DNA from: Rhodotorula mucilaginosa
Taxonomy: Eukaryota; Basidiomycota; Microbotryomycetes; Sporidiobolales; Sporidiobolaceae
Direction of reading: 5' to 3'
NCBI GenBank assembly: GCA_034406715.1
Contig: CP137881.1
Coordinates: 1 to 64,000 of the forward strand
DNA: 64,000 nucleotides
In this document: in pieces, positions 1 through 28,800 of the stretch
How positions within the stretch are numbered: position 1 is the first letter of the stretch
Layout: each line of letters starts with the position of its first letter
The notes under the pieces: model-generated
Seen by the model: the letters and a program-made list of their open reading frames with translations, nothing else
Databases searched by the model: none
What the model was told of the DNA's origin: nothing
Position numbers and translations under genes: made by a program

Positions 1-2183
1 ACGAGCCGGCCTGAAATTGAGTTCACGATTGTGTATCCGCCATAGCTCAGTGCCACGTCGGAGGCATACTCCGGCTCCTTGTCCTTCAGTGACAACAAGC
101 CCGAGATGATCGTGGACGCCCAGGCCAAGTTGGCGTAGTGGTCGCTTGCGTAGCGTCGCATGAAATCCAATGCATGCTCGAGCAATTCGAACGTCACGAA
201 CCGCACGTAGAATCGAGCGAGTCTGTCAGTGGAGGACCCGCTCAACTTGTTTGCAGGCGTGTCTTGATTGCTCAGCGGGTCGCCGGTAACAATCGGTGTG
301 GCGGGCGTGCTGGGCGGCTCGATGAAGGGTTTGTCGACGAGGTGCAGGAGGAAGGCGCGGGTTTCCTCGCAGGCTTTGATCGTGCTGAAAACGACGCCCT
401 CGCGCTTCAACGGAGGATGAGGGAACGCACTCTCGTCGAGACGAGCGTTGATGACGGCGAGAAGCCTTGAGCCGTCGTCCATGTCGGCCTGCTTGAGCGT
501 CGCTTCCCGCTCGTCGCGTGCTCGGAGTGCGTCCAGCGCCTCCCTCTCGATTTCGCGCAGTACCGTCCAGGGCCCGTCAACCAGGAGCGGCGCAATGACG
601 GACTCGAGCGGCGCTGCAGTCGTGTTGAGGACAGGGGACGCGCCAGAAATCGCGGTTCCCGTGTGATCCGTCGCAGTTGCCGTTGGGGCCGCCACCGCCG
701 CCACCACCGCCGCTGCCGTCGCAGCCGTAGCCAATGAGCTTGCCATTGGGTTCTTGTACGGGCTCGTCTCTGTCGATGAACCAGCCACGGCTGACTCTGC
801 ACCCGTCGAAATCGGACCTGCGGACAAAGGCAGTGGGCAGGGGAGAGAGTAGCGCCTTTGCGCGACAATGCGCGCAGGAAGCGCAACTTTGCCGTTCTCG
901 TCAAGGCGGAGAGCGTTGCCTGGCCGGACAAGTTTTCTTGTCGTCAGGATCAAGTCTGGCATCAAGAGGCGGGCAGAGCGCAGAGAGCACTCACTCGTAC
1001 TTGTGAGAGGTGGCACAATGTTCATGTTCCCGCTCGTAAGCCCCGCAGCCACCACGGTCGGATCTTGCGAGGTCGAGTTGGGGCCGATGCGCGCCGCCAA
1101 GCCGTGCCGTCGAGCGGTTGGGAGGCCCTTGATGACGTGATCCCGTACAGCGTTCGCGTGTGCAATCTTGGTGTCGTCACGGATGTGGATCCGCCACTGG
1201 CCGCAGGTAACGTACGCGTCAATTTGCAGCTCGAAGCGCTCCTTCTGCGTGCTGTTGCTGGCATCTTTGCGCAGGTACTGAATGCACTGACCTATGCCAA
1301 TCGCGCCCGCAATGGTCGTTCCAATCTCTTGCCGCTTGCGCGCCTGGATTTCGAGTTGCTCGCGGCGGCGCATCTCGGACCGAGCCGCGACAGCGAGACT
1401 CTCCCCTTGTGCCTGGACCAAGAACCACCTCGCAAAGTCGTCGGACGTGGCGAGCATGCACATTGTGGCAAAGTCGCTTGGGAGCGATGTCTGGTTCAAC
1501 CGGACCGAGACTAGCTGCGCGACTCGCGGAGCAGAAGAGAGGAGGTCGCTGTTTTCGATCGCGGCTGGATTCGAGCCTCCGGCGGTCAAGCTTGTCGAAG
1601 GCGAGGACGAGGATATGGCGAGGAGCTTGACTGCGTCTGCAATCGCATCTTCCGCGAGAGGAGGGCCGTCAAAGACGACACTCGAGCTGCGGAGGACGGC
1701 GGACGTGCTCTGCGCACTCCGGAGGGCACCAAAGCGTTGACCGAGGCGGTGCCGCGCCTTGTCGAGCTTGATCGCAAGACCGATATCCTCACAGATCTGG
1801 TCGACGCTCCTCTTGATCTGCTCGAGGTTGATGCAGCCCGCGAGGCGGTGTTCGAGGTGAACTTTGCGCGTGATCTGCAGCTTCACCTCGATAATTGCAG
1901 CGAGACAAACGACGAGGTCTTGTACGGCAGGGTAGTACTTGATAAAGCCGCAGTCGATCTGGTCGAGGTGCAACATCTCGACGCCGAGAGGCCCCTCGAC
2001 GACTTCGAGGGTGCAGACAGAGGCGAGCCAGTCCTTGGCCCAGAGCTCCTTCCACTTGTGCTCCGCTGGTGGTGCAACGTGTTCAAGGAGAGTCCGGGTC
2101 GTTCGGGTTTGGACACCCAAGAACGCTCGTTGTTCCGGCGTATCGACGGTTCCGATCGCGGCACCGATCATCCCCCGGCGCAC
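1..2183 (-). CDS. Array protein, outer-left terminal copy (partial)
   Basis: This is the N-terminal and middle part of the array protein; the C-terminal part lies left of the window. It shares outer-copy markers with the right terminal copy. The MRLQTQ shadow variant near 1640 appears only here and in the 25,897 copy. Arg rather than Cys near 1160 appears here and in the two right-hand outer copies. The Ala/Val tract near 690-720 is four codons shorter than in inner copies. Bases 1-290 are more diverged than any other coding stretch of the left arm. Confidence 0.5.
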   Translation of the reverse strand, partial: MRRGMIGAAIGTVDTPEQRAFLGVQTRTTRTLLEHVAPPAEHKWKELWAKDWLASVCTLEVVEGPLGVEMLHLDQIDCGFIKYYPAVQDLVVCLAAIIEVKLQITRKVHLEHRLAGCINLEQIKRSVDQICEDIGLAIKLDKARHRLGQRFGALRSAQSTSAVLRSSSVVFDGPPLAEDAIADAVKLLAISSSSPSTSLTAGGSNPAAIENSDLLSSAPRVAQLVSVRLNQTSLPSDFATMCMLATSDDFARWFLVQAQGESLAVAARSEMRRREQLEIQARKRQEIGTTIAGAIGIGQCIQYLRKDASNSTQKERFELQIDAYVTCGQWRIHIRDDTKIAHANAVRDHVIKGLPTARRHGLAARIGPNSTSQDPTVVAAGLTSGNMNIVPPLTSTSECSLRSARLLMPDLILTTRKLVRPGNALRLDENGKVALPARIVAQRRYSLPCPLPLSAGPISTGAESAVAGSSTETSPYKNPMASSLATAATAAAVVAAVAAPTATATDHTGTAISGASPVLNTTAAPLESVIAPLLVDGPWTVLREIEREALDALRARDEREATLKQADMDDGSRLLAVINARLDESAFPHPPLKREGVVFSTIKACEETRAFLLHLVDKPFIEPPSTPATPIVTGDPLSNQDTPANKLSGSSTDRLARFYVRFVTFELLEHALDFMRRYASDHYANLAWASTIISGLLSLKDKEPEYASDVALSYGGYTIVNSISGRL

Positions 2184-2195
2184 AATTGAGGACAG

Positions 2196-5100
2196 CTACG
2201 CAAGAGAGAGCAGGTCAGTAGTGGCAACAGGGAATAGACTTGTGAAATCGACACGTACCTTCGACACATGGGTGACAAGAATGGCCGGCTTGACGAGGGC
2301 GAGGAGCCGCGCAACAAAGACAATCGCAATACGCACGAGCTTGTGTCGCAGCTGAATCGACCACAAGTCGACGTATGCAATGAGGGCGATCCACCCGAGT
2401 ACCTCGTCGACCGGCTCTTGCAGGACGCCGCGTGCAATGACATAGCCGGCGTGACTGCCCCGACTCGCGCGAGGACCGAAGAAAGCCTCGCGACCGACGA
2501 GCGAGGAGCGGGTAACGTCTTTCCCGACGACAAAGACGTCGGTGGAAGCATCCTCCTCTGGGGCGAGTACGCCTCGCTGCGAAAAGCTCGTCGCCGCCTG
2601 CTTGATGGCAGCAAACGCGCGACGTCCACCTTCGGTACCGACATCGATTGTCTTGCCTGCCTCGGACGGATCGACTTCCGACTGCCAGAATATGAGCATG
2701 TCGTCGAAGTGATGCCTGACGGCATGCTGAATCTGCTGCTGAGTGTCGGTCGGACTGCGCTCCGGCAGGGCGAGCCGGTCGAGGTCTTCCTGGCGTGCAC
2801 CCGCTGCGGCAAGGAAGGCGTGCTGGCGGGAAAAGGCCGACTCGACGACCTCGAGTCGTCTCCCACCTCTTGCTGAGTTGGTTGAGAACGATCGACAAGC
2901 GGCAATGATGGCAACCTCGCGGTCCGCAATGTGCGCCGCGTTGGCGTCGAGGTCGTCGTTGGCGGCTGTACGAAGCGAGACGAGCTCGCGCGCGTGCAAG
3001 CGGCTTGGCACCGAGTTGCCCATCTTCTTACAGAGGGCAAGCAGGTTTGTCATGCGTGACTGCTCGATGGCGAGGTCGTCGACGAGCCGGCCTGAAATGG
3101 AGTTCGCGATCGTGTATCCACCGTAGCTCAGTGCCACGTTGGAGGCATACTCCGGCTCCTTGTCCTTCAGTGACAACAAGCCCGAGATGATCGTGGACGC
3201 CCAGGCCAAGTTGGCGTAGTGGTCGCTTGCGTAGTGCCGCATGAATTCCAATGCGTGCTTGAGCGATTCGAACGTCACGAACCGTGCGTAAAATCGGGCA
3301 AGCCCGTCCGAGGACTCGCTCAACTCGTTTGCGGGCGCGTCTCGATCGTTCAGCGGGTCGCCGGTAACAATCGGTGTGGCGGGCGTGCTGGGCGGCTCGA
3401 CGAAGGGTTTGTCGACGAGGTGCAGGAGGAAGGCGCGGGTTTCCTCGCAGGCTTTGATCGTGCTGAAAACGACGCCCTCGCGCTTCAACGGAGGATGAGG
3501 GAACGCACTCTCGTCGAGACGAGCGTTGATGACGGCGAGAAGCCTTGAGCCGTCGTCCATGTCGGCCTGCTTGAGCGTCGCTTCCCGCTCGTCGCGTGCT
3601 CGGAGTGCGTCCAGCGCCTCCCTCTCGATTTCGCGCAGTACCGTCCAGGGCCCGTCAACCAGGAGCGGCGCAATGACGGACTCGAGCGGCGCTGCAGTCG
3701 TGTTGAGGACAGGGGACGCGCCAGAAATCGCGGTTCCCGTGTGATCCGTCGCAGTTGCCGTTGGGGCCGCCACCGCCGCCACCACCGCCGCCACCACCGC
3801 CGCTGCCGTCGCAGCCGTAGCCAATGAGCTTGCCATTGGGTTCTTGTACGGGCTCGTCTCTGTCGATGAACCAGCCACGGCTGACTCTGCACCCGTCGAA
3901 ATCGGACCTGCGGACAAAGGCAGTGGGCAGGGGAGAGAGTAGCGCCTTTGCGCGACAATGCGCGCAGGAAGCGCAACTTTGCCGTTCTCGTCAAGGCGGA
4001 GAGCGTTGCCTGGCCGGACAAGTTTTCTTGTCGTCAGGATCAAGTCTGGCATCAAGAGGCGGGCAGAGCGCAGAGAGCACTCACTCGTACTTGTGAGAGG
4101 TGGCACAATGTTCATGTTCCCGCTCGTAAGCCCCGCAGCCACCACGGTCGGATCTTGCGAGGTCGAGTTGGGGCCGATGCGCGCCGCCAAGCCGTGCCGT
4201 CGAGCGGTTGGGAGGCCCTTGATGACGTGATCCCGTACAGCGTTTGCGTGTGCAATCTTGGTGTCGTCACGGATGTGGATCCGCCACTGGCCGCAGGTAA
4301 CGTACGCGTCAATTTGCAGCTCGAAGCGCTCCTTCTGCGTGCTGTTGCTGGCATCTTTGCGCAGGTACTGAATGCACTGACCTATGCCAATCGCGCCCGC
4401 AATGGTCGTTCCAATCTCTTGCCGCTTGCGCGCCTGGATTTCGAGTTGCTCGCGGCGGCGCATCTCGGACCGAGCCGCGACAGCGAGACTCTCCCCTTGT
4501 GCCTGGACCAAGAACCACCTCGCAAAGTCGTCGGACGTGGCGAGCATGCACATTGTGGCAAAGTCGCTTGGGAGCGATGTCTGGTTCAACCGGACCGAGA
4601 CTAGCTGCGCGACTCGCGGAGCAGAAGAGAGGAGGTCGCTGTTTTCGATCGCGGCTGGATTCGAGCCTCCGGCGGTCAAGCTTGTCGAAGGCGAGGACGA
4701 GGATATGGCGAGGAGCTTGACTGCGTCTGCGATCGCATCTTCCGCGAGAGGAGGGCCGTCAAAGACGACACTCGAGCTGCGGAGGACGGCGGACGTGCTC
4801 TGCGCACTCCGGAGGGCACCAAAGCGTTGACCGAGGCGGTGCCGCGCCTTGTCGAGCTTGATCGCAAGACCGATATCCTCACAGATCTGGTCGACGCTCC
4901 TCTTGATCTGCTCGAGGTTGATGCAGCCCGCGAGGCGGTGTTCGAGGTGAACTTTGCGCGTGATCTGCAGCTTCACCTCGATAATTGCAGCGAGACAAAC
5001 GACGAGGTCTTGTACGGCAGGGTAGTACTTGATAAAGCCGCAGTCGATCTGGTCGAGGTGCAACATCTCGACGCCGAGAGGCCCCTCGACGACTTCGAGG

Positions 5101-5273
5101 GTGCAGACAGAGGCGAGCCAGTCCTTGGCCCAGAGCTCCTTCCACTTGTGCTCCGCTGGTGGTGCAACGTGTTCAAGGAGAGTCCGGGTCGTTCGGGTTT
5201 GGACACCCAAGAACGCTCGTTGTTCCGGCGTATCGACGGTTCCGATCGCGGCACCGATCATCCCCCGGCGCAC
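2196..5273 (-). CDS. Array protein unit, unknown function (reference copy)
   Basis: A 1,025-codon frame with strong GC3 bias like the host genes nearby, so it looks truly coding; I do not recognise the family. What can be seen: an N-terminal half rich in charged helices; Ser/Thr-rich linkers near residues 190-215; a low-complexity Ala/Val segment near residues 490-515 encoded by a GCC/ACC tract; charged helical stretches around 560-620 and 800-850; and a hydrophobic C-terminal end (about 960-1003), which may be membrane-associated. No reverse transcriptase, transposase, protease or nuclease motif is visible. The first codon called is GTG, and the first ATG is four codons later. No promoter-like break separates it from the next unit, only 12 bases away. 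The last 20 residues plus stop are probably an intron (2196-2258), so the exonic unit would be 2259-5285 and would continue into its neighbours. A second possible in-phase intron of 177 nt lies mid-unit (20905-21081 in the 19,716 copy). Confidence 0.6.
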   Translation of the reverse strand: MRRGMIGAAIGTVDTPEQRAFLGVQTRTTRTLLEHVAPPAEHKWKELWAKDWLASVCTLEVVEGPLGVEMLHLDQIDCGFIKYYPAVQDLVVCLAAIIEVKLQITRKVHLEHRLAGCINLEQIKRSVDQICEDIGLAIKLDKARHRLGQRFGALRSAQSTSAVLRSSSVVFDGPPLAEDAIADAVKLLAISSSSPSTSLTAGGSNPAAIENSDLLSSAPRVAQLVSVRLNQTSLPSDFATMCMLATSDDFARWFLVQAQGESLAVAARSEMRRREQLEIQARKRQEIGTTIAGAIGIGQCIQYLRKDASNSTQKERFELQIDAYVTCGQWRIHIRDDTKIAHANAVRDHVIKGLPTARRHGLAARIGPNSTSQDPTVVAAGLTSGNMNIVPPLTSTSECSLRSARLLMPDLILTTRKLVRPGNALRLDENGKVALPARIVAQRRYSLPCPLPLSAGPISTGAESAVAGSSTETSPYKNPMASSLATAATAAAVVAAVVAAVAAPTATATDHTGTAISGASPVLNTTAAPLESVIAPLLVDGPWTVLREIEREALDALRARDEREATLKQADMDDGSRLLAVINARLDESAFPHPPLKREGVVFSTIKACEETRAFLLHLVDKPFVEPPSTPATPIVTGDPLNDRDAPANELSESSDGLARFYARFVTFESLKHALEFMRHYASDHYANLAWASTIISGLLSLKDKEPEYASNVALSYGGYTIANSISGRLVDDLAIEQSRMTNLLALCKKMGNSVPSRLHARELVSLRTAANDDLDANAAHIADREVAIIAACRSFSTNSARGGRRLEVVESAFSRQHAFLAAAGARQEDLDRLALPERSPTDTQQQIQHAVRHHFDDMLIFWQSEVDPSEAGKTIDVGTEGGRRAFAAIKQAATSFSQRGVLAPEEDASTDVFVVGKDVTRSSLVGREAFFGPRASRGSHAGYVIARGVLQEPVDEVLGWIALIAYVDLWSIQLRHKLVRIAIVFVARLLALVKPAILVTHVSKVRVDFTSLFPVATTDLLSLA
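3766..3807 (-). repeat. GCC/ACC trinucleotide tract inside each unit
   Basis: A short trinucleotide run that codes the Ala/Val tract of the array protein. Inner copies share one length; the outermost copy on each side (about 687-718 and 27,365-27,396) is 12 nt shorter. It works as a natural length marker of copy identity. Confidence 0.8.
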
Positions 5274-5285
5274 AATTGAGGACAG

Positions 5286-8200
5286 CTACGCAAGAGAGAG
5301 CAGGTCAGTAGTGGCAACAGGGAATAGACTTGTGAAATCGACACGTACCTTCGACACATGGGTGACAAGAATGGCCGGCTTGACGAGGGCGAGGAGCCGC
5401 GCAACAAAGACAATCGCAATACGCACGAGCTTGTGTCGCAGCTGAATCGACCACAAGTCGACGTATGCAATGAGGGCGATCCACCCGAGTACCTCGTCGA
5501 CCGGCTCTTGCAGGACGCCGCGTGCAATGACATAGCCGGCGTGACTGCCCCGACTCGCGCGAGGACCGAAGAAAGCCTCGCGACCGACGAGCGAGGAGCG
5601 GGTAACGTCTTTCCCGACGACAAAGACGTCGGTGGAAGCATCCTCCTCTGGGGCGAGTACGCCTCGCTGCGAAAAGCTCGTCGCCGCCTGCTTGATGGCA
5701 GCAAACGCGCGACGTCCACCTTCGGTACCGACATCGATTGTCTTGCCTGCCTCGGACGGATCGACTTCCGACTGCCAGAATATGAGCATGTCGTCGAAGT
5801 GATGCCTGACGGCATGCTGAATCTGCTGCTGAGTGTCGGTCGGACTGCGCTCCGGCAGGGCGAGCCGGTCGAGGTCTTCCTGGCGTGCACCCGCTGCGGC
5901 AAGGAAGGCGTGCTGGCGGGAAAAGGCCGACTCGACGACCTCGAGTCGTCTCCCACCTCTTGCTGAGTTGGTTGAGAACGATCGACAAGCGGCAATGATG
6001 GCAACCTCGCGGTCCGCAATGTGCGCCGCGTTGGCGTCGAGGTCGTCGTTGGCGGCTGTACGAAGCGAGACGAGCTCGCGCGCGTGCAAGCGGCTTGGCA
6101 CCGAGTTGCCCATCTTCTTACAGAGGGCAAGCAGGTTTGTCATGCGTGACTGCTCGATGGCGAGGTCGTCGACGAGCCGGCCTGAAATGGAGTTCGCGAT
6201 CGTGTATCCACCGTAGCTCAGTGCCACGTTGGAGGCATACTCCGGCTCCTTGTCCTTCAGTGACAACAAGCCCGAGATGATCGTGGACGCCCAGGCCAAG
6301 TTGGCGTAGTGGTCGCTTGCGTAGTGCCGCATGAATTCCAATGCGTGCTTGAGCGATTCGAACGTCACGAACCGTGCGTAAAATCGGGCAAGCCCGTCCG
6401 AGGACTCGCTCAACTCGTTTGCGGGCGCGTCTCGATCGTTCAGCGGGTCGCCGGTAACAATCGGTGTGGCGGGCGTGCTGGGCGGCTCGACGAAGGGTTT
6501 GTCGACGAGGTGCAGGAGGAAGGCGCGGGTTTCCTCGCAGGCTTTGATCGTGCTGAAAACGACGCCCTCGCGCTTCAACGGAGGATGAGGGAACGCACTC
6601 TCGTCGAGACGAGCGTTGATGACGGCGAGAAGCCTTGAGCCGTCGTCCATGTCGGCCTGCTTGAGCGTCGCTTCCCGCTCGTCGCGTGCTCGGAGTGCGT
6701 CCAGCGCCTCCCTCTCGATTTCGCGCAGTACCGTCCAGGGCCCGTCAACCAGGAGCGGCGCAATGACGGACTCGAGCGGCGCTGCAGTCGTGTTGAGGAC
6801 AGGGGACGCGCCAGAAATCGCGGTTCCCGTGTGATCCGTCGCAGTTGCCGTTGGGGCCGCCACCGCCGCCACCACCGCCGCCACCACCGCCGCTGCCGTC
6901 GCAGCCGTAGCCAATGAGCTTGCCATTGGGTTCTTGTACGGGCTCGTCTCTGTCGATGAACCAGCCACGGCTGACTCTGCACCCGTCGAAATCGGACCTG
7001 CGGACAAAGGCAGTGGGCAGGGGAGAGAGTAGCGCCTTTGCGCGACAATGCGCGCAGGAAGCGCAACTTTGCCGTTCTCGTCAAGGCGGAGAGCGTTGCC
7101 TGGCCGGACAAGTTTTCTTGTCGTCAGGATCAAGTCTGGCATCAAGAGGCGGGCAGAGCGCAGAGAGCACTCACTCGTACTTGTGAGAGGTGGCACAATG
7201 TTCATGTTCCCGCTCGTAAGCCCCGCAGCCACCACGGTCGGATCTTGCGAGGTCGAGTTGGGGCCGATGCGCGCCGCCAAGCCGTGCCGTCGAGCGGTTG
7301 GGAGGCCCTTGATGACGTGATCCCGTACAGCGTTTGCGTGTGCAATCTTGGTGTCGTCACGGATGTGGATCCGCCACTGGCCGCAGGTAACGTACGCGTC
7401 AATTTGCAGCTCGAAGCGCTCCTTCTGCGTGCTGTTGCTGGCATCTTTGCGCAGGTACTGAATGCACTGACCTATGCCAATCGCGCCCGCAATGGTCGTT
7501 CCAATCTCTTGCCGCTTGCGCGCCTGGATTTCGAGTTGCTCGCGGCGGCGCATCTCGGACCGAGCCGCGACAGCGAGACTCTCCCCTTGTGCCTGGACCA
7601 AGAACCACCTCGCAAAGTCGTCGGACGTGGCGAGCATGCACATTGTGGCAAAGTCGCTTGGGAGCGATGTCTGGTTCAACCGGACCGAGACTAGCTGCGC
7701 GACTCGCGGAGCAGAAGAGAGGAGGTCGCTGTTTTCGATCGCGGCTGGATTCGAGCCTCCGGCGGTCAAGCTTGTCGAAGGCGAGGACGAGGATATGGCG
7801 AGGAGCTTGACTGCGTCTGCGATCGCATCTTCCGCGAGAGGAGGGCCGTCAAAGACGACACTCGAGCTGCGGAGGACGGCGGACGTGCTCTGCGCACTCC
7901 GGAGGGCACCAAAGCGTTGACCGAGGCGGTGCCGCGCCTTGTCGAGCTTGATCGCAAGACCGATATCCTCACAGATCTGGTCGACGCTCCTCTTGATCTG
8001 CTCGAGGTTGATGCAGCCCGCGAGGCGGTGTTCGAGGTGAACTTTGCGCGTGATCTGCAGCTTCACCTCGATAATTGCAGCGAGACAAACGACGAGGTCT
8101 TGTACGGCAGGGTAGTACTTGATAAAGCCGCAGTCGATCTGGTCGAGGTGCAACATCTCGACGCCGAGAGGCCCCTCGACGACTTCGAGGGTGCAGACAG

Positions 8201-8363
8201 AGGCGAGCCAGTCCTTGGCCCAGAGCTCCTTCCACTTGTGCTCCGCTGGTGGTGCAACGTGTTCAAGGAGAGTCCGGGTCGTTCGGGTTTGGACACCCAA
8301 GAACGCTCGTTGTTCCGGCGTATCGACGGTTCCGATCGCGGCACCGATCATCCCCCGGCGCAC
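5286..8363 (-). CDS. Array protein unit, left copy 3
   Basis: Matches the 2,196-5,273 copy without any difference I noticed, including the 178-codon antisense shadow length set by the longer GCC/ACC tract. Candidate unit-joining intron at 5286-5348. Confidence 0.58.
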   Translation of the reverse strand: MRRGMIGAAIGTVDTPEQRAFLGVQTRTTRTLLEHVAPPAEHKWKELWAKDWLASVCTLEVVEGPLGVEMLHLDQIDCGFIKYYPAVQDLVVCLAAIIEVKLQITRKVHLEHRLAGCINLEQIKRSVDQICEDIGLAIKLDKARHRLGQRFGALRSAQSTSAVLRSSSVVFDGPPLAEDAIADAVKLLAISSSSPSTSLTAGGSNPAAIENSDLLSSAPRVAQLVSVRLNQTSLPSDFATMCMLATSDDFARWFLVQAQGESLAVAARSEMRRREQLEIQARKRQEIGTTIAGAIGIGQCIQYLRKDASNSTQKERFELQIDAYVTCGQWRIHIRDDTKIAHANAVRDHVIKGLPTARRHGLAARIGPNSTSQDPTVVAAGLTSGNMNIVPPLTSTSECSLRSARLLMPDLILTTRKLVRPGNALRLDENGKVALPARIVAQRRYSLPCPLPLSAGPISTGAESAVAGSSTETSPYKNPMASSLATAATAAAVVAAVVAAVAAPTATATDHTGTAISGASPVLNTTAAPLESVIAPLLVDGPWTVLREIEREALDALRARDEREATLKQADMDDGSRLLAVINARLDESAFPHPPLKREGVVFSTIKACEETRAFLLHLVDKPFVEPPSTPATPIVTGDPLNDRDAPANELSESSDGLARFYARFVTFESLKHALEFMRHYASDHYANLAWASTIISGLLSLKDKEPEYASNVALSYGGYTIANSISGRLVDDLAIEQSRMTNLLALCKKMGNSVPSRLHARELVSLRTAANDDLDANAAHIADREVAIIAACRSFSTNSARGGRRLEVVESAFSRQHAFLAAAGARQEDLDRLALPERSPTDTQQQIQHAVRHHFDDMLIFWQSEVDPSEAGKTIDVGTEGGRRAFAAIKQAATSFSQRGVLAPEEDASTDVFVVGKDVTRSSLVGREAFFGPRASRGSHAGYVIARGVLQEPVDEVLGWIALIAYVDLWSIQLRHKLVRIAIVFVARLLALVKPAILVTHVSKVRVDFTSLFPVATTDLLSLA

Positions 8364-8375
8364 AATTGAGGACAG

Positions 8376-11453: not shown

Positions 11454-11465
11454 AATTGAGGACAG

Positions 11466-17570: not shown

Positions 17571-17646
17571 GAACGCTCGTTGTTCCGGCGTATCGACGGT
17601 TCACGATCGCGGCACCGATCATCCCCCGGCGCACAATTGAGGACAG

Positions 17647-18306: not shown

Positions 18307-19703
18307 ACGAGCGGGAAGCGACGCTCAAGCAGGCCGACATGGACGACGGCTCAAGGCTTCTCGCCGTCATCAACGCTCGTCTCGACGAGAGTGCGTTCCC
18401 TCATCCTCCGTTGAAGCGCGAGGGCGTCGTTTTCAGCACGATCAAAGCCTGCGAGGAAACCCGCGCCTTCCTCCTGCACCTCGTCGACAAACCCTTCGTC
18501 GAGCCGCCCAGCACGCCCGCCACACCGATCGTTACCGGCGACCCGCTGAACGATCGAGACGCGCCCGCAAACGAGTTGAGCGAGTCCTCGGACGGGCTTG
18601 CCCGATTTTACGCACGGTTCGTGACGTTCGAATCGCTCAAGCACGCATTGGAATTCATGCGGCACTACGCAAGCGACCACTACGCCAACTTGGCCTGGGC
18701 GTCCACGATCATCTCGGGCTTGTTGTCACTGAAGGACAAGGAGCCGGAGTATGCCTCCAACGTGGCACTGAGCTACGGTGGATACACGATCGCGAACTCC
18801 ATTTCAGGCCGGCTCGTCGACGACCTCGCCATCGAGCAGTCACGCATGACAAACCTGCTTGCCCTCTGTAAGAAGATGGGCAACTCGGTGCCAAGCCGCT
18901 TGCACGCGCGCGAGCTCGTCTCGCTTCGTACAGCCGCCAACGACGACCTCGACGCCAACGCGGCGCACATTGCGGACCGCGAGGTTGCCATCATTGCCGC
19001 TTGTCGATCGTTCTCAACCAACTCAGCAAGAGGTGGGAGACGACTCGAGGTCGTCGAGTCGGCCTTTTCCCGCCAGCACGCCTTCCTTGCCGCAGCGGGT
19101 GCACGCCAGGAAGACCTCGACCGGCTCGCCCTGCCGGAGCGCAGTCCGACCGACACTCAGCAGCAGATTCAGCATGCCGTCAGGCATCACTTCGACGACA
19201 TGCTCATATTCTGGCAGTCGGAAGTCGATCCGTCCGAGGCAGGCAAGACAATCGATGTCGGTACCGAAGGTGGACGTCGCGCGTTTGCTGCCATCAAGCA
19301 GGCGGCGACGAGCTTTTCGCAGCGAGGCGTACTCGCCCCAGAGGAGGATGCTTCCACCGACGTCTTTGTCGTCGGGAAAGACGTTACCCGCTCCTCGCTC
19401 GTCGGTCGCGAGGCTTTCTTCGGTCCTCGCGCGAGTCGGGGCAGTCACGCCGGCTATGTCATTGCACGCGGCGTCCTGCAAGAGCCGGTCGACGAGGTAC
19501 TCGGGTGGATCGCCCTCATTGCATACGTCGACTTGTGGTCGATTCAGCTGCGACACAAGCTCGTGCGTATTGCGATTGTCTTTGTTGCGCGGCTCCTCGC
19601 CCTCGTCAAGCCGGCCATTCTTGTCACCCATGTGTCGAAGGTACGTGTCGATTTCACAAGTCTATTCCCTGTTGCCACTACTGACCTGCTCTCTCTTGCG
19701 TAG
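18307..19703 (+). pseudogene. Array protein, C-terminal half at the centre, right arm
   Basis: Open from the junction to the candidate intron at 19641-19703, beginning inside the unit at the stretch that reads ADMDDGSRLLAV. No unique sequence and no promoter-like region precede it, so on its own it is a 5'-truncated unit. An ATG at 18339 opens 454 codons. Confidence 0.5.
19641..19703 (+). other. Candidate 63-nt in-phase intron joining array units
   Basis: Donor GTACGT, branch-like CTGAC 23 nt before the end, pyrimidine tract, acceptor GCGTAG. Its length is a multiple of three and its last codon is the only stop of the unit frame. Removing it joins the Lys codon before 19641 to CTG TCC TCA ATT of the next unit in frame. 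The same intron occurs at 2196-2258, 5286-5348, 8376-8438, 11466-11528, 14556-14618 and 17647-17709 (minus), and at 22732-22794 and 25822-25884 (plus). Splicing itself is inferred. Confidence 0.7.
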
Positions 19704-19715
19704 CTGTCCTCAATT

Positions 19716-22700
19716 GTGCGCCGGGGGATGATCGGTGCCGCGATCGGAACCGTCGATACGCCGGAACAACGAGCGTTCTTGGGTGTCCAAACCCGAACGA
19801 CCCGGACTCTCCTTGAACACGTTGCACCACCAGCGGAGCACAAGTGGAAGGAGCTCTGGGCCAAGGACTGGCTCGCCTCTGTCTGCACCCTCGAAGTCGT
19901 CGAGGGGCCTCTCGGCGTCGAGATGTTGCACCTCGACCAGATCGACTGCGGCTTTATCAAGTACTACCCTGCCGTACAAGACCTCGTCGTTTGTCTCGCT
20001 GCAATTATCGAGGTGAAGCTGCAGATCACGCGCAAAGTTCACCTCGAACACCGCCTCGCGGGCTGCATCAACCTCGAGCAGATCAAGAGGAGCGTCGACC
20101 AGATCTGTGAGGATATCGGTCTTGCGATCAAGCTCGACAAGGCGCGGCACCGCCTCGGTCAACGCTTTGGTGCCCTCCGGAGTGCGCAGAGCACGTCCGC
20201 CGTCCTCCGCAGCTCGAGTGTCGTCTTTGACGGCCCTCCTCTCGCGGAAGATGCGATCGCAGACGCAGTCAAGCTCCTCGCCATATCCTCGTCCTCGCCT
20301 TCGACAAGCTTGACCGCCGGAGGCTCGAATCCAGCCGCGATCGAAAACAGCGACCTCCTCTCTTCTGCTCCGCGAGTCGCGCAGCTAGTCTCGGTCCGGT
20401 TGAACCAGACATCGCTCCCAAGCGACTTTGCCACAATGTGCATGCTCGCCACGTCCGACGACTTTGCGAGGTGGTTCTTGGTCCAGGCACAAGGGGAGAG
20501 TCTCGCTGTCGCGGCTCGGTCCGAGATGCGCCGCCGCGAGCAACTCGAAATCCAGGCGCGCAAGCGGCAAGAGATTGGAACGACCATTGCGGGCGCGATT
20601 GGCATAGGTCAGTGCATTCAGTACCTGCGCAAAGATGCCAGCAACAGCACGCAGAAGGAGCGCTTCGAGCTGCAAATTGACGCGTACGTTACCTGCGGCC
20701 AGTGGCGGATCCACATCCGTGACGACACCAAGATTGCACACGCAAACGCTGTACGGGATCACGTCATCAAGGGCCTCCCAACCGCTCGACGGCACGGCTT
20801 GGCGGCGCGCATCGGCCCCAACTCGACCTCGCAAGATCCGACCGTGGTGGCTGCGGGGCTTACGAGCGGGAACATGAACATTGTGCCACCTCTCACAAGT
20901 ACGAGTGAGTGCTCTCTGCGCTCTGCCCGCCTCTTGATGCCAGACTTGATCCTGACGACAAGAAAACTTGTCCGGCCAGGCAACGCTCTCCGCCTTGACG
21001 AGAACGGCAAAGTTGCGCTTCCTGCGCGCATTGTCGCGCAAAGGCGCTACTCTCTCCCCTGCCCACTGCCTTTGTCCGCAGGTCCGATTTCGACGGGTGC
21101 AGAGTCAGCCGTGGCTGGTTCATCGACAGAGACGAGCCCGTACAAGAACCCAATGGCAAGCTCATTGGCTACGGCTGCGACGGCAGCGGCGGTGGTGGCG
21201 GCGGTGGTGGCGGCGGTGGCGGCCCCAACGGCAACTGCGACGGATCACACGGGAACCGCGATTTCTGGCGCGTCCCCTGTCCTCAACACGACTGCAGCGC
21301 CGCTCGAGTCCGTCATTGCGCCGCTCCTGGTTGACGGGCCCTGGACGGTACTGCGCGAAATCGAGAGGGAGGCGCTGGACGCACTCCGAGCACGCGACGA
21401 GCGGGAAGCGACGCTCAAGCAGGCCGACATGGACGACGGCTCAAGGCTTCTCGCCGTCATCAACGCTCGTCTCGACGAGAGTGCGTTCCCTCATCCTCCG
21501 TTGAAGCGCGAGGGCGTCGTTTTCAGCACGATCAAAGCCTGCGAGGAAACCCGCGCCTTCCTCCTGCACCTCGTCGACAAACCCTTCGTCGAGCCGCCCA
21601 GCACGCCCGCCACACCGATTGTTACCGGCGACCCGCTGAACGATCGAGACGCGCCCGCAAACGAGTTGAGCGAGTCCTCGGACGGGCTTGCCCGATTTTA
21701 CGCACGGTTCGTGACGTTCGAATCGCTCAAGCACGCATTGGAATTCATGCGGCACTACGCAAGCGACCACTACGCCAACTTGGCCTGGGCGTCCACGATC
21801 ATCTCGGGCTTGTTGTCACTGAAGGACAAGGAGCCGGAGTATGCCTCCAACGTGGCACTGAGCTACGGTGGATACACGATCGCGAACTCCATTTCAGGCC
21901 GGCTCGTCGACGACCTCGCCATCGAGCAGTCACGCATGACAAACCTGCTTGCCCTCTGTAAGAAGATGGGCAACTCGGTGCCAAGCCGCTTGCACGCGCG
22001 CGAGCTCGTCTCGCTTCGTACAGCCGCCAACGACGACCTCGACGCCAACGCGGCGCACATTGCGGACCGCGAGGTTGCCATCATTGCCGCTTGTCGATCG
22101 TTCTCAACCAACTCAGCAAGAGGTGGGAGACGACTCGAGGTCGTCGAGTCGGCCTTTTCCCGCCAGCACGCCTTCCTTGCCGCAGCGGGTGCACGCCAGG
22201 AAGACCTCGACCGGCTCGCCCTGCCGGAGCGCAGTCCGACCGACACTCAGCAGCAGATTCAGCATGCCGTCAGGCATCACTTCGACGACATGCTCATATT
22301 CTGGCAGTCGGAAGTCGATCCCGTCCGAGGCAGGCAAGACAATCGATGTCGGTACCGAAGGTGGACGTCGCGCGTTTGCTGCCATCAAGCAGGCGGCGAC
22401 GAGCTTTTCGCAGCGAGGCGTACTCGCCCCAGAGGAGGATGCTTCCACCGACGTCTTTGTCGTCGGGAAAGACGTTACCCGCTCCTCGCTCGTCGGTCGC
22501 GAGGCTTTCTTCGGTCCTCGCGCGAGTCGGGGCAGTCACGCCGGCTATGTCATTGCACGCGGCGTCCTGCAAGAGCCGGTCGACGAGGTACTCGGGTGGA
22601 TCGCCCTCATTGCATACGTCGACTTGTGGTCGATTCAGCTGCGACACAAGCTCGTGCGTATTGCGATTGTCTTTGTTGCGCGGCTCCTCGCCCTCGTCAA

Positions 22701-22775
22701 GCCGGCCATTCTTGTCACCCATGTGTCGAAGGTACGTGTCGATTTCACAAGTCTATTCCCTGTTGCCACTACTGA
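19716..22775 (+). CDS. Array protein unit, first full right copy, with a +1 shift
   Basis: Normal for about the first 870 codons. One extra C near 22,321 then moves translation into another frame, which stays open to 22775; the original frame resumes in a parallel reading to the candidate intron at 22732-22794. Period to the next unit is 3,091 bp. Like the innermost left copy, it sits beside the centre. Confidence 0.45.
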   Translation: MRRGMIGAAIGTVDTPEQRAFLGVQTRTTRTLLEHVAPPAEHKWKELWAKDWLASVCTLEVVEGPLGVEMLHLDQIDCGFIKYYPAVQDLVVCLAAIIEVKLQITRKVHLEHRLAGCINLEQIKRSVDQICEDIGLAIKLDKARHRLGQRFGALRSAQSTSAVLRSSSVVFDGPPLAEDAIADAVKLLAISSSSPSTSLTAGGSNPAAIENSDLLSSAPRVAQLVSVRLNQTSLPSDFATMCMLATSDDFARWFLVQAQGESLAVAARSEMRRREQLEIQARKRQEIGTTIAGAIGIGQCIQYLRKDASNSTQKERFELQIDAYVTCGQWRIHIRDDTKIAHANAVRDHVIKGLPTARRHGLAARIGPNSTSQDPTVVAAGLTSGNMNIVPPLTSTSECSLRSARLLMPDLILTTRKLVRPGNALRLDENGKVALPARIVAQRRYSLPCPLPLSAGPISTGAESAVAGSSTETSPYKNPMASSLATAATAAAVVAAVVAAVAAPTATATDHTGTAISGASPVLNTTAAPLESVIAPLLVDGPWTVLREIEREALDALRARDEREATLKQADMDDGSRLLAVINARLDESAFPHPPLKREGVVFSTIKACEETRAFLLHLVDKPFVEPPSTPATPIVTGDPLNDRDAPANELSESSDGLARFYARFVTFESLKHALEFMRHYASDHYANLAWASTIISGLLSLKDKEPEYASNVALSYGGYTIANSISGRLVDDLAIEQSRMTNLLALCKKMGNSVPSRLHARELVSLRTAANDDLDANAAHIADREVAIIAACRSFSTNSARGGRRLEVVESAFSRQHAFLAAAGARQEDLDRLALPERSPTDTQQQIQHAVRHHFDDMLIFWQSEVDPVRGRQDNRCRYRRWTSRVCCHQAGGDELFAARRTRPRGGCFHRRLCRRERRYPLLARRSRGFLRSSRESGQSRRLCHCTRRPARAGRRGTRVDRPHCIRRLVVDSAATQARAYCDCLCCAAPRPRQAGHSCHPCVEGTCRFHKSIPCCHY

Positions 22776-22806
22776 CCTGCTCTCTCTTGCGTAGCTGTCC
22801 TCAATT

Positions 22807-25800
22807 GTGCGCCGGGGGATGATCGGTGCCGCGATCGGAACCGTCGATACGCCGGAACAACGAGCGTTCTTGGGTGTCCAAACCCGAACGACCCGGACTC
22901 TCCTTGAACACGTTGCACCACCAGCGGAGCACAAGTGGAAGGAGCTCTGGGCCAAGGACTGGCTCGCCTCTGTCTGCACCCTCGAAGTCGTCGAGGGGCC
23001 TCTCGGCGTCGAGATGTTGCACCTCGACCAGATCGACTGCGGCTTTATCAAGTACTACCCTGCCGTACAAGACCTCGTCGTTTGTCTCGCTGCAATTATC
23101 GAGGTGAAGCTGCAGATCACGCGCAAAGTTCACCTCGAACACCGCCTCGCGGGCTGCATCAACCTCGAGCAGATCAAGAGGAGCGTCGACCAGATCTGTG
23201 AGGATATCGGTCTTGCGATCAAGCTCGACAAGGCGCGGCACCGCCTCGGTCAACGCTTTGGTGCCCTCCGGAGTGCGCAGAGCACGTCCGCCGTCCTCCG
23301 CAGCTCGAGTGTCGTCTTTGACGGCCCTCCTCTCGCGGAAGATGCGATCGCAGACGCAGTCAAGCTCCTCGCCATATCCTCGTCCTCGCCTTCGACAAGC
23401 TTGACCGCCGGAGGCTCGAATCCAGCCGCGATCGAAAACAGCGACCTCCTCTCTTCTGCTCCGCGAGTCGCGCAGCTAGTCTCGGTCCGGTTGAACCAGA
23501 CATCGCTCCCAAGCGACTTTGCCACAATGTGCATGCTCGCCACGTCCGACGACTTTGCGAGGTGGTTCTTGGTCCAGGCACAAGGGGAGAGTCTCGCTGT
23601 CGCGGCTCGGTCCGAGATGCGCCGCCGCGAGCAACTCGAAATCCAGGCGCGCAAGCGGCAAGAGATTGGAACGACCATTGCGGGCGCGATTGGCATAGGT
23701 CAGTGCATTCAGTACCTGCGCAAAGATGCCAGCAACAGCACGCAGAAGGAGCGCTTCGAGCTGCAAATTGACGCGTACGTTACCTGCGGCCAGTGGCGGA
23801 TCCACATCCGTGACGACACCAAGATTGCACACGCGAACGCTGTACGGGATCACGTCATCAAGGGCCTCCCAACCGCTCGACGGCACGGCTTGGCGGCGCG
23901 CATCGGCCCCAACTCGACCTCGCAAGATCCGACCGTGGTGGCTGCGGGGCTTACGAGCGGGAACATGAACATTGTGCCACCTCTCACAAGTACGAGTGAG
24001 TGCTCTCTGCGCTCTGCCCGCCTCTTGATGCCAGACTTGATCCTGACGACAAGAAAACTTGTCCGGCCAGGCAACGCTCTCCGCCTTGACGAGAACGGCA
24101 AAGTTGCGCTTCCTGCGCGCATTGTCGCGCAAAGGCGCTACTCTCTCCCCTGCCCACTGCCTTTGTCCGCAGGTCCGATTTCGACGGGTGCAGAGTCAGC
24201 CGTGGCTGGTTCATCGACAGAGACGAGCCCGTACAAGAACCCAATGGCAAGCTCATTGGCTACGGCTGCGACGGCAGCGGCGGTGGTGGCGGCGGTGGTG
24301 GCGGCGGTGGCGGCCCCAACGGCAACTGCGACGGATCACACGGGAACCGCGATTTCTGGCGCGTCCCCTGTCCTCAACACGACTGCAGCGCCGCTCGAGT
24401 CCGTCATTGCGCCGCTCCTGGTTGACGGGCCCTGGACGGTACTGCGCGAAATCGAGAGGGAGGCGCTGGACGCACTCCGAGCACGCGACGAGCGGGAAGC
24501 GACGCTCAAGCAGGCCGACATGGACGACGGCTCAAGGCTTCTCGCCGTCATCAACGCTCGTCTCGACGAGAGTGCGTTCCCTCATCCTCCGTTGAAGCGC
24601 GAGGGCGTCGTTTTCAGCACGATCAAAGCCTGCGAGGAAACCCGCGCCTTCCTCCTGCACCTCGTCGACAAACCCTTCGTCGAGCCGCCCAGCACGCCCG
24701 CCACACCGATTGTTACCGGCGACCCGCTGAACGATCGAGACGCGCCCGCAAACGAGTTGAGCGAGTCCTCGGACGGGCTTGCCCGATTTTACGCACGGTT
24801 CGTGACGTTCGAATCGCTCAAGCACGCATTGGAATTCATGCGGCACTACGCAAGCGACCACTACGCCAACTTGGCCTGGGCGTCCACGATCATCTCGGGC
24901 TTGTTGTCACTGAAGGCCAAGGAGCCGGAGTATGCCTCCAACGTGGCACTGAGCTACGGTGGATACACGATCGCGAACTCCATTTCAGGCCGGCTCGTCG
25001 ACGACCTCGCCATCGAGCAGTCACGCATGACAAACCTGCTTGCCCTCTGTAAGAAGATGGGCAACTCGGTGCCAAGCCGCTTGCACGCGCGCGAGCTCGT
25101 CTCGCTTCGTACAGCCGCCAACGACGACCTCGACGCCAACGCGGCGCACATTGCGGACCGCGAGGTTGCCATCATTGCCGCTTGTCGATCGTTCTCAACC
25201 AACTCAGCAAGAGGTGGGAGACGACTCGAGGTCGTCGAGTCGGCCTTTTCCCGCCAGCACGCCTTCCTTGCCGCAGCGGGTGCACGCCAGGAAGACCTCG
25301 ACCGGCTCGCCCTGCCGGAGCGCAGTCCGACCGACACTCAGCAGCAGATTCAGCATGCCGTCAGGCATCACTTCGACGACATGCTCATATTCTGGCAGTC
25401 GGAAGTCGATCCGTCCGAGGCAGGCAAGACAATCGATGTCGGTACCGAAGGTGGACGTCGCGCGTTTGCTGCCATCAAGCAGGCGGCGACGAGCTTTTCG
25501 CAGCGAGGCGTACTCGCCCCAGAGGAGGATGCTTCCACCGACGTCTTTGTCGTCGGGAAAGACGTTACCCGCTCCTCGCTCGTCGGTCGCGAGGCTTTCT
25601 TCGGTCCTCGCGCGAGTCGGGGCAGTCACGCCGGCTATGTCATTGCACGCGGCGTCCTGCAAGAGCCGGTCGACGAGGTACTCGGGTGGATCGCCCTCAT
25701 TGCATACGTCGACTTGTGGTCGATTCAGCTGCGACACAAGCTCGTGCGTATTGCGATTGTCTTTGTTGCGCGGCTCCTCGCCCTCGTCAAGCCGGCCATT

Positions 25801-25884
25801 CTTGTCACCCATGTGTCGAAGGTACGTGTCGATTTCACAAGTCTATTCCCTGTTGCCACTACTGACCTGCTCTCTCTTGCGTAG
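22807..25884 (+). CDS. Array protein unit, second full right copy
   Basis: Complete frame. It differs from inner copies by Ala for Asp in the LSLKDKEP stretch (near 24,916) and carries the outer-copy Arg variant near 23,836. Candidate unit-joining intron at 25822-25884. Confidence 0.58.
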   Translation: MRRGMIGAAIGTVDTPEQRAFLGVQTRTTRTLLEHVAPPAEHKWKELWAKDWLASVCTLEVVEGPLGVEMLHLDQIDCGFIKYYPAVQDLVVCLAAIIEVKLQITRKVHLEHRLAGCINLEQIKRSVDQICEDIGLAIKLDKARHRLGQRFGALRSAQSTSAVLRSSSVVFDGPPLAEDAIADAVKLLAISSSSPSTSLTAGGSNPAAIENSDLLSSAPRVAQLVSVRLNQTSLPSDFATMCMLATSDDFARWFLVQAQGESLAVAARSEMRRREQLEIQARKRQEIGTTIAGAIGIGQCIQYLRKDASNSTQKERFELQIDAYVTCGQWRIHIRDDTKIAHANAVRDHVIKGLPTARRHGLAARIGPNSTSQDPTVVAAGLTSGNMNIVPPLTSTSECSLRSARLLMPDLILTTRKLVRPGNALRLDENGKVALPARIVAQRRYSLPCPLPLSAGPISTGAESAVAGSSTETSPYKNPMASSLATAATAAAVVAAVVAAVAAPTATATDHTGTAISGASPVLNTTAAPLESVIAPLLVDGPWTVLREIEREALDALRARDEREATLKQADMDDGSRLLAVINARLDESAFPHPPLKREGVVFSTIKACEETRAFLLHLVDKPFVEPPSTPATPIVTGDPLNDRDAPANELSESSDGLARFYARFVTFESLKHALEFMRHYASDHYANLAWASTIISGLLSLKAKEPEYASNVALSYGGYTIANSISGRLVDDLAIEQSRMTNLLALCKKMGNSVPSRLHARELVSLRTAANDDLDANAAHIADREVAIIAACRSFSTNSARGGRRLEVVESAFSRQHAFLAAAGARQEDLDRLALPERSPTDTQQQIQHAVRHHFDDMLIFWQSEVDPSEAGKTIDVGTEGGRRAFAAIKQAATSFSQRGVLAPEEDASTDVFVVGKDVTRSSLVGREAFFGPRASRGSHAGYVIARGVLQEPVDEVLGWIALIAYVDLWSIQLRHKLVRIAIVFVARLLALVKPAILVTHVSKVRVDFTSLFPVATTDLLSLA

Positions 25885-25896
25885 CTGTCCTCAATT

Positions 25897-28800
25897 GTGC
25901 GCCGGGGGATGATCGGTGCCGCGATCGGAACCGTCGATACGCCGGAACAACGAGCGTTCTTGGGTGTCCAAACCCGAACGACCCGGACTCTCCTTGAACA
26001 CGTTGCACCACCAGCGGAGCACAAGTGGAAGGAGCTCTGGGCCAAGGACTGGCTCGCCTCTGTCTGCACCCTCGAAGTCGTCGAGGGGCCTCTCGGCGTC
26101 GAGATGTTGCACCTCGACCAGATCGACTGCGGCTTTATCAAGTACTACCCTGCCGTACAAGACCTCGTCGTTTGTCTCGCTGCAATTATCGAGGTGAAGC
26201 TGCAGATCACGCGCAAAGTTCACCTCGAACACCGCCTCGCGGGCTGCATCAACCTCGAGCAGATCAAGAGGAGCGTCGACCAGATCTGTGAGGATATCGG
26301 TCTTGCGATCAAGCTCGACAAGGCGCGGCACCGCTTCGGTCAACGCTTTGGTGCCCTCCGGAGTGCGCAGAGCACGTCCGCCGTCCTCCGCAGCTCGAGT
26401 GTCGTCTTTGACGGCCCTCCTCTCGCGGAAGATGCGATTGCAGACGCAGTCAAGCTCCTCGCCATATCCTCGTCCTCGCCTTCGACAAGCTTGACCGCCG
26501 GAGGCTCGAATCCAGCCGCGATCGAAAACAGCGACCTCCTCTCTTCTGCTCCGCGAGTCGCGCAGCTAGTCTCGGTCCGGTTGAACCAGACATCGCTCCC
26601 AAGCGACTTTGCCACAATGTGCATGCTCGCCACGTCCGACGACTTTGCGAGGTGGTTCTTGGTCCAGGCACAAGGGGAGAGTCTCGCTGTCGCCGCTCGG
26701 TCCGAGATGCGCCGCCGCGAGCAACTCGAAATCCAGGCGCGCAAGCGGCAAGAGATTGGAACGACCATTGCGGGCGCGATTGGCATAGGTCAGTGCATTC
26801 AGTACCTGCGCAAAGATGCCAGCAACAGCACGCAGAAGGAGCGCTTCGAGCTGCAAATTGACGCGTACGTTACCTGCGGCCAGTGGCGGATCCACATCCG
26901 TGACGACACCAAGATTGCACACGCGAACGCTGTACGGGATCACGTCATCAAGGGCCTCCCAACCGCTCGACGGCACGGCTTGGCGGCGCGCATCGGCCCC
27001 AACTCGACCTCGCAAGATCCGACCGTGGTGGCTGCGGGGCTTACGAGCGGGAACATGAACATTGTGCCACCTCTCACAAGTACGAGTGAGTGCTCTCTGC
27101 GCTCTGCCTGCCTCTTGATGCCAGACTTGATCCTGACGACAAGAAAACTTGTCCGGCCAGGCAACGCTCTCCGCCTTGACGAGAACGGCAAAGTTGCGCT
27201 TCCTGCGCGCATTGTCGCGCAAAGGCGCTACTCTCTCCCCTGCCCACTGCCTTTGTCCGCAGGTCCGATTTCGACGGGTGCAGAGTCAGCCGTGGCTGGT
27301 TCATCGACAGAGACAAGCCCGTACAAGAACCCAATGGCAAGCTCATTGGCTACGGCTGCGACGGCAGCGGCGGTGGTGGCGGCGGTGGCGGCCCCAACGG
27401 CAACTGCGACGGATCACACGGGAACCGCGATTTCTGGCGCGTCCCCTGTCCTCAACACGACTGCAGCGCCGCTCGAGTCCGTCATTGCGCCGCTCCTGGT
27501 TGACGGGCCCTGGACGGTACTGCGCGAAATTGAGAGGGAGGCGCTGGACGCACTCCGAGCACGCGACGAGCGGGAAGCGACGCTCAAGCAGGCCGACATG
27601 GACGACGGCTCAAGGCTTCTCGCCGTCATCAACGCTCGTCTCGACGAGAGTGCGTTCCCTCATCCTCCGTTGAAGCGCGAGGGCGTCGTTTTCAGCACGA
27701 TCAAAGCCTGCGAGGAAACCCGCGCCTTCCTCCTGCACCTCGTCGACAAACCCTTCGTCGAGCCGCCCAGCACGCCCGCCACACCGATCGTTACCGGCGA
27801 CCCGCTGAACGATCGAGACGCGCCCGCAAACGAGTTGAGCGAGTCCTCGGACGGGCTTGCCCGATTTTACGCACGGTTCGTGACGTTCGAATCGCTCAAG
27901 CACGCATTGGAATTCATGCGGCACTACGCAAGCGACCACTACGCCAACTTGGCCTGGGCGTCCACGATCATCTCGGGCTTGTTGTCACTGAAGGACAAGG
28001 AGCCGGAGTATGCCTCCGACGTGGCACTGAGCTATGGCGGATACACAATCGTGAACTCAATTTCAGGCCGGCTCGTCGACGACCTCGCCATCGAGCAGTT
28101 ATCATTGCCGCTTGTTGATCGTTCCCAACCAACTTGGCCAGAGGTGGAAGACGACTCGAGATTGTCGAGTCAGCCTTTTCTCGTCAGCACGCCTTCCGTG
28201 CCGCAGCGGACGCGCGCCAGGCAGACCTCGACCAACCCGCCCTGCCTGAACGCAGTCCGACTGACGCTCAGCAGCAGATTCAGCACGCCATCAGGCGTCA
28301 CTTTGTCGACATGCTCACATTCTGGCAGTCGGAAGTCGATCTGTCAGAGGCAGGCAATACAATTGATGTCGGTACCAAAGGTGGACGTCCGGCTTTTGCT
28401 GCCATCAAGCAGGCAGCGACGAGCTTTTTGCGGCGAGGCGTACTCGCCCCAGAGGAGGATGCTTCCACCGACGTCTTTGTCGTCGGCAAAGGCGTTACTC
28501 GCTCCTCGCTTGTCGGTTGCGAGGCTTTCTTTGGTCCTCGTGCAAGTCGTGGCGGTCACGCCGGCTACGTTGTCACACGTGACCTGCTGCAAGAGCCGGT
28601 CAACAAGGTACTCGGGTTGCAAGACGTACCGTCCGCGAGGAAGCAAGTTGCCTCGAGACGGACGACTCGCGTGAAGGTGGACTTGTAGCTTGTATCTCCA
28701 GTCACAAGAGACAGTGAATCAAGCTTTGTATTCCAATCAGAGAGTGGAAGTGACCTGGAGAGAAGAAGAAGGAAAAGAAGAAGTCGAACAAACATCTACA

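What the first reader, a model, noticed from the sequence alone, without database searches (positions are those of the whole stretch)
1..28688. Tandem units may be spliced into one giant repeat protein
The only stop in each unit frame is the last codon of a consensus 63-nt intron (GTACGT...CTGAC...GCGTAG), and the intron length is a multiple of three. Removing it carries the frame into the next unit, so n units would give n x 1,009 residues. The left arm reads without interruption from 17,570 to position 1, more than 5,600 residues. If no splicing occurs, the result is a row of 1,025-codon frames only 12 bases apart with no room for promoters, which is hard to explain for separate genes. I know of no described family with repeats of this size and kind.
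Basis: partly seen in the sequence, partly recalled or inferred. Interest (0 to 1): 0.82.

Follow-up and report, generated by a model that had tools for sequence, protein, structure and literature searches.

The report
In-frame tandem array of yeast gene
A red yeast carries near-identical head-to-tail copies of one gene, fused in frame and folded into a large inverted repeat; the sequence would allow a giant protein, but no start, no proper end and no transcript are known, so it may simply be a gene-derived repeat.

Summary
Window 1-28,100 is a tandem array of a 3,090-nt unit (7 full, 4 partial copies) in two arms diverging from a fold-back at about 18,250. The only stop in the unit frame is the last codon of a 63-nt intron. 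With it removed the left arm reads 5,751 codons without a stop.

The unit border is misplaced. A paralogue on contig C6 and other relatives match the unit circularly permuted: the natural protein starts in mid-unit, crosses the intron and runs into the next unit. Splicing is thus needed even for one ordinary protein. Still, no stop separates successive copies, so the DNA does spell an in-frame fusion of 984-1,009 residues per unit.

Against a working giant gene: the 5' end of both arms is the fold-back, made of unit pieces only; the right-hand last copy is broken by a deletion and a solo LTR; 2 of 7 full units carry a 1-nt frameshift; the family's C-terminal region is not found in the unit. 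Best reading: in-frame tandem amplification of a gene with only Rhodotorula among its named relatives, then inverted duplication. A translated giant protein remains possible (about 0.2).

The parts
1..18246 (-). Left arm: 5 full units (17634-14544, 14543-11454, 11453-8364, 8363-5274, 5273-2184), one partial unit at the inner end (18246-17635) and one edge-type partial unit at the contig start (2183-1)
   Evidence: blastn of the unit against the window; variants
18243..18306 (.). Fold-back junction: - unit down to 2479, + unit 1656-1675, - unit 2493-2450, + unit from 1682, with 3-4 nt shared at two of the switches
   Evidence: maximal exact matches
18304..28100 (+). Right arm: partial unit 18304-19715, full units 19716-22806 and 22807-25896, edge-type partial unit 25897-28099
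   Evidence: 1-nt insertion in the unit at 19716
24250..26931 (+). One gene-equivalent in natural order: unit codon 482 to the unit end, intron 1, then codons 1 to about 345 of the next unit; significant profile match reaches codon 237 of the next unit
   Evidence: family profile
25822..25884 (+). Intron 1 (63 nt), example copy; other right-arm copies 19641-19703 and 22732-22794; left-arm copies 2196-2258, 5286-5348, 8376-8438, 11466-11528, 14556-14618 and, with one substitution, 17647-17709
   Evidence: profile test
23996..24070 (+). Intron 2 (75 nt, probable), example copy; 9 copies in all
   Evidence: skipped in gene model P0004 but kept in P0005; non-coding-like codon score
23842..24447 (+). 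Linker (unit 1036-1641) between one core and the next, open in the joining frame
24277..24314 (+). 12-nt-period microsatellite GCGGCGGTGGTG inside the linker; example of 7 in the array
28101..28617 (+). Diverged remnant of the edge copy (88% identity to unit 2365-2881, dN/dS 0.26)
28618..28981 (+). Solo LTR of a retrotransposon inserted in the edge copy
   Evidence: LTR pairs on C3 and C7; coding part of the C7 element
28179..30429 (+). Flank repeated at the start of contig C17 (99.73% identity over 2,252 nt)
33854..35125 (-). Neighbour gene whose relative in Rhodotorula sp. CCFEE 5036 is modelled in one piece with an array unit in the same sense

Best explanation
A recent, homogenised tandem amplification of one member of a gene family whose named relatives here are all Rhodotorula. 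Shown: the unit holds most of one gene body in permuted order, an internal 63-nt intron and a linker, with no stop between copies. Inferred: the unit arose by recombination within the gene region, perhaps at the 12-nt-period Ala/Val microsatellite, whose length keeps the frame; the natural start and the C-terminal end with its stop were left out of the unit. Inferred: a fold-back, template-switch event then made an inverted duplication of the array with its 3' flank, so that contigs C17 and C18 are probably two sides of one chromosome. As assembled, the array has no outside promoter and, on the right, no intact last copy. It most likely persists as a gene-derived repeat kept uniform by gene conversion or unequal exchange, not as a working giant gene. 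If it is transcribed, intron 1 is probably spliced (about 0.9), and translation would run on through several units.
For: Permuted match to the C6 paralogue and to the family profile in one stretch across the intron site. Copies nearly identical, four inner left units identical to each other. Both outer copies share a 12-nt deletion and seven substitutions that inner units lack, and the flank 28,179-30,429 recurs at C17:1-2252, as expected of an inverted duplication. Alternating switches with short shared sequence at the fold-back. No outside sequence between the arms. Right edge broken by a deletion of about 149 nt and a solo LTR. Two of 7 full units frameshifted. Of 6 coding substitutions confined to inner copies 5 change the protein, so there is no sign of present constraint there. 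C-terminal family region not found in the unit.
Against: The whole unit keeps a codon-like base pattern, and the linker is open and frame-0-like in the calibrated codon test, more than a dead repeat needs. The decayed edge segment shows dN/dS 0.26 against the unit, so copies were once under constraint. The 1-nt insertions may be sequencing errors. Recombination at the microsatellite is not shown.
Confidence: 0.55

Rival explanations
1. A working giant gene: one transcript from a first copy with its own promoter, not resolved in this assembly; introns removed in every unit, giving n x 984-1,009 residues, perhaps cut at the linkers.
For: 5,751 codons without a stop in the left arm. Linker open: 1.5% of 5,000 shuffles are open over its 606 nt. 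Linker codon score 0.039 lies above the 95th percentile of wrong frames in the calibrated test. Models P0004 and P0005 read through the linker in frame although their linkers are 33 residues shorter. P0007 shows that in CCFEE 5036 an array unit lies next to non-array sequence on its 5' side.
Against: No outside 5' end here; right-hand last copy broken; frameshifts in 2 of 7 full units. The linker scores below the 25th percentile of true frames and looked non-coding in the first codon test. Over the linker's 330 nt without intron 2 and the low-complexity end, 8.4% of shuffles are open. P0004 also leaves out two core stretches, so these gene models are not reliable.
Confidence: 0.2
2. Separate one-unit genes: each unit has a promoter and poly(A) signal inside the linker, or the chain ends at the intron-1 stop when that intron is kept, giving about 545 residues from the Met near codon 480.
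For: One possible start codon lies in the linker of every unit. A relative on C6 is a gene of about this kind standing alone.
Against: No stop lies between the core end and the next core in the unit frame, so a complete one-unit protein with both gene halves cannot end inside the linker in that frame. The linker is only about 600 nt.
Confidence: 0.1
3. The inverted layout or the copy number is an assembly artefact (not exclusive of the other readings).
For: The contig starts inside the array. Contig ends C17 right and C18 right carry low-complexity tails. One of the 1-nt insertions lies in a C run. In CCFEE 5036 the neighbour gene and the array unit are modelled in the same sense, the opposite of the right arm here.
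Against: The fold-back shows alternating switches with short shared sequence, and the C17 copy of the flank differs by 5 substitutions and a gap, which fits two real copies better. It would not touch the unit, intron or permutation results.
Confidence: 0.25

Closest known systems
Unnamed family of hypothetical proteins: C6 paralogue (P0009), JCM8115_001049 (P0013), JCM3774_004518 (P0010), P0011, P0012
   Same: Profile positions 184-999 of 1,412 align in order with the rotated, spliced unit, 219.0 bits
   Different: They stand alone, with extra N- and C-terminal parts; the C-terminal Cys/His-rich part (zinc-finger-like by eye) is not found in the unit. Identity of the unit to P0009 is about 29%
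Array gene in other assemblies: P0004 (JCM8115_001598), P0005, P0006 (C6P46_003715), P0007 (B0A53_06497)
   Same: 89-93% identical over the best local stretch; P0004 covers parts of two successive units in one gene model
   Different: P0004 has 178 extra residues at about unit codon 340 and, like P0005, a linker 33 residues shorter
Genes that encode head-to-tail repeats in one frame, such as polyubiquitin (recalled, not tested here)
   Same: Near-identical units joined in frame without a stop
   Different: Unit of about 1,000 residues instead of 76; an intron in each unit; no intact start or end seen; transcript and processing unknown

Membership tests
P0009/P0010/P0013 family | Core of the family in natural order | tested here: met
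   One match, profile 184-999, E = 1.6e-68 for the rotated spliced unit
P0009/P0010/P0013 family | C-terminal Cys/His-rich region and natural end | tested here: not met
   C-terminal profile against unit codons 251-420: -0.8 bits; P0004 gives 10.2 bits
P0009/P0010/P0013 family | N-terminal domain before the low-complexity stretch | tested here: not met
   Linker against a profile of four N-terminal parts: negative scores; P0009 as cut from its ATG lacks it too
Head-to-tail in-frame repeat gene (polyubiquitin-like arrangement) | Units joined in one frame without a stop | tested here: met
   Left arm, 5,751 codons, intron 1 removed; the right arm is frameshifted near 22,319
Head-to-tail in-frame repeat gene (polyubiquitin-like arrangement) | Intact first copy with start and last copy with stop | tested here: not met
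   Inner ends are a fold-back of unit pieces; right-hand last copy broken; left-hand last copy runs off the contig
Head-to-tail in-frame repeat gene (polyubiquitin-like arrangement) | One transcript, one translated chain | not testable with these tools
   No RNA or protein data at hand
Modular giant enzymes (such as peptide synthetases) | Known catalytic domains in each unit | tested here: not met
   No Pfam family at E <= 1 in the unit read from its own border
Transposable element | Transposase, reverse transcriptase or integrase domain in the unit | tested here: not met
   No Pfam family at E <= 1; no convincing terminal inverted repeats around the C6 gene (25 of 50 pairs shown)

The most novel reading that the evidence does not exclude
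The array is expressed as one spliced transcript from a first copy not resolved in this assembly, giving a protein of several thousand residues built from nearly identical units of 984-1,009 residues. Each copy of intron 1 acts as a switch: keeping it ends the chain there, so splicing efficiency would set the chain length, and unequal exchange would change the number of units.
Probability: 0.15. Interest if true: 0.72.

Novelty: new variant of a known kind. Interest (0 to 1): 0.42.

Why it matters
A gene model that crosses unit borders is already in a public database (P0004), so such arrays mislead annotation. If translated, this would be an extreme repeat protein with near-identical units of about 1,000 residues and a chain length that could change by unequal exchange. 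If not, it is a clear case of a gene turned into a tandem repeat and then into a large inverted repeat while its frame stayed open.

Tried and rejected
Domains: Pfam on the unit, on P0009, P0004, P0005, P0007 and the C6 3' ORF and on the 7 members of A2 gave only sub-threshold hits (best Nop10p, E = 0.01, one member of 7); a PDB sequence search of the unit gave nothing. Structure: AlphaFold on P0012 with 10 sequences gave mean pLDDT 34.4, so no fold search was made. Transposon ends around the C6 gene: only short or weak inverted pairs among the 25 of 50 shown. Linker as the family's N-terminal domain: suspected by eye, not supported by a profile. Further relatives: a profile search with A2 gave 9 proteins; the 3 with an organism name are Rhodotorula; only the 7,987 candidates sharing most words were scored. 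Other copies in the genome: protein searches gave only C18, the C17 start and C6; a DNA search gave the C17 start and six microsatellite matches on C1, C5 and C8, but that tool skips very common words and did not even list C18; these are lower bounds. Plasmid-like contigs of R. babjevae (passages of PMC9027234): nothing there links them to this array. A 13-sequence alignment that mixed permuted and natural orders was not used.

The two codon-usage tests differ. Trained on the C6 gene alone, the linker pieces scored -0.14, -0.01, -0.12 and -0.01 bits per codon in frame 0, against 0.26 and 0.30 for the core and -0.22 and -0.10 for introns 1 and 2. Trained on nine ORFs, frame 0 of the linker pieces scored 0.08, 0.00, 0.07 and 0.17 against 0.14 and 0.15 for the core and -0.21 and -0.10 for the introns; in the low-complexity piece a wrong frame scored higher (0.18), and one of the nine training ORFs scored best in a wrong frame. 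I give the second test more weight because it was calibrated by leave-one-out.
Full report
WHAT IS THERE. The window is the first 64 kb of contig C18 of a 20.35-Mb, 19-contig genome. Four of the five protein matches to the unit bear a name, three from Rhodotorula mucilaginosa and one from Rhodotorula sp. CCFEE 5036, so I take the source to be R. mucilaginosa or a close relative. A 3,090-nt unit occurs as 7 full-length and 4 partial copies. The - strand arm runs from 18,246 to 1, the + strand arm from 18,304 to about 28,100. Four inner left units are identical to each other and differ from the copy at 22,807 by two substitutions. In the unit frame the single stop is the last codon of the 63-nt intron; the other five frames hold 10 to 36 stops per unit. 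With the five intron-1 copies removed, 17,570-1 reads 5,751 codons with no stop. In the right arm a 1-nt insertion near 22,319 breaks the unit frame; another lies near 17,603.

THE UNIT IS PERMUTED. A search of the same genome with the unit protein found one further locus besides C18 and the C17 start: G000:C6:298755-301031 on the - strand, 30-33% identical, read in the order 508-762, 758-1004, 15-196 within one open frame (pairwise comparison). A profile of eight relatives (P0009-P0016) aligns in one stretch from unit codon 482 through the unit end to codon 237 of the next unit. Gene models P0004, P0006 and P0007 also omit it; P0005 starts after it and says nothing.

IS THE FUSION CODING? The part between one core and the next (unit 1036-1641, with a probable 75-nt intron 2) is open in the frame that joins them. 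Of 5,000 dinucleotide-preserving shuffles, 1.5% are open over the 606 nt and 8.4% over the 330 nt that leave out intron 2 and the low-complexity end. Two codon-usage tests differ (numbers in Tried and rejected). In the calibrated one the 110 linker codons score 0.039, above the 95th percentile of wrong frames (0.00) and below the 25th percentile of true frames (0.08). P0004 and P0005 read through the same linker in frame although theirs is 33 residues shorter; as gene models they are biased towards open frames, and P0004 also skips two core stretches. P0004 skips intron 2, P0005 keeps it. The decayed edge copy over unit 2365-2881 differs from the unit with dN/dS 0.26 (32 synonymous, 28 non-synonymous changes), so copies were once under protein-level constraint. 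Among 42 distinct coding substitutions between the copies 19 are synonymous, against 34% expected for random transitions; of the 6 confined to inner copies only 1 is (my count).

ENDS OF THE ARRAY. Transcription of both arms would run away from the fold-back at 18,243-18,306, which consists of unit pieces, so no promoter from outside is present there. The two outer copies share a 12-nt deletion and seven substitutions that inner units lack. On the right the edge copy loses about 149 nt at 28,100, continues at 88% identity and is interrupted by a 364-nt sequence. That sequence occurs elsewhere in pairs about 6.7 kb apart (C3 twice, C7 once), singly on C2 and C10, and as weaker or broken matches. 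The C7 element encodes reverse transcriptase, RNase H, integrase, protease and a chromodomain, so the window copy is a solo LTR. The left outer copy runs off the contig before the place of the deletion. The flank 28,179-30,429 recurs at C17:1-2252 with 5 substitutions and a gap. If the left edge copy ends as the right one does, C18:1 and C17:1 lie about 100 nt apart and probably join. C18's right end carries TTAGGG repeats about 400 nt before its end; the C17 left end shows none in its first 6 kb, and a tandem-repeat scan of the window none either. C17's right end is A/C-rich low-complexity sequence.

OTHER STRAINS. P0007 (CCFEE 5036, a 13.7-kb contig) joins part of a relative of the gene at window 33854-35125 (-) to an array unit in the same sense; the match in this genome covers query 109-201 at 72% identity. 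The right arm here has the opposite sense. Either the array was inverted between strains or one assembly or gene model is wrong.

LITERATURE. Seven searches (two of them empty) listed nothing, by title and start of abstract, on this array or family. I saw passages of PMC9027234 and the whole text of PMC12509554; what I saw does not describe it. The library lacks most subscription papers.

VERDICT. The array, the intron and the missing stops are real. The natural repeat is one gene body plus a linker. In-frame tandem amplification followed by inverted duplication explains the layout. Whether a giant protein is made cannot be told from the DNA; the missing first copy, the broken right-hand last copy, the frameshifts and the lost C-terminus argue against it in this assembly.

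Noticed in passing
28618-28981: Solo LTR of a chromodomain-bearing retrotransposon; full elements lie on C3 (two) and C7.
   Followed up: partly
28179-30429: Flank with the tRNA-Leu(CAA) gene at 29849-29931 is repeated at C17:1-2252, so this tRNA gene is probably present twice.
   Followed up: partly
G000 C17 and C18 right ends (L038, L039): The last 3 kb of C17 is A/C-rich sequence unlike the genome, and C18 has about 400 nt of G-rich sequence beyond its telomere repeats: probably assembly tails.
   Followed up: partly
P0008 and P0016: Relatives in other assemblies are joined in one model to integrase (PF00665) or DDE transposase (PF13359) domains, perhaps insertions of mobile elements into family copies or faulty gene models.
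   Followed up: no
L009 (G000:C6:295500-304500): The single-copy paralogue: a 1,040-codon ORF at 5406-2284 (-); a further same-strand ORF at 2336-1848 looks like its 3' exon after an intron.
   Followed up: partly
30429-64000: Ordinary gene neighbourhood with matches to ATG14, CBS, ABC transporter, Med4 and leucine carboxyl methyltransferase families.
   Followed up: no
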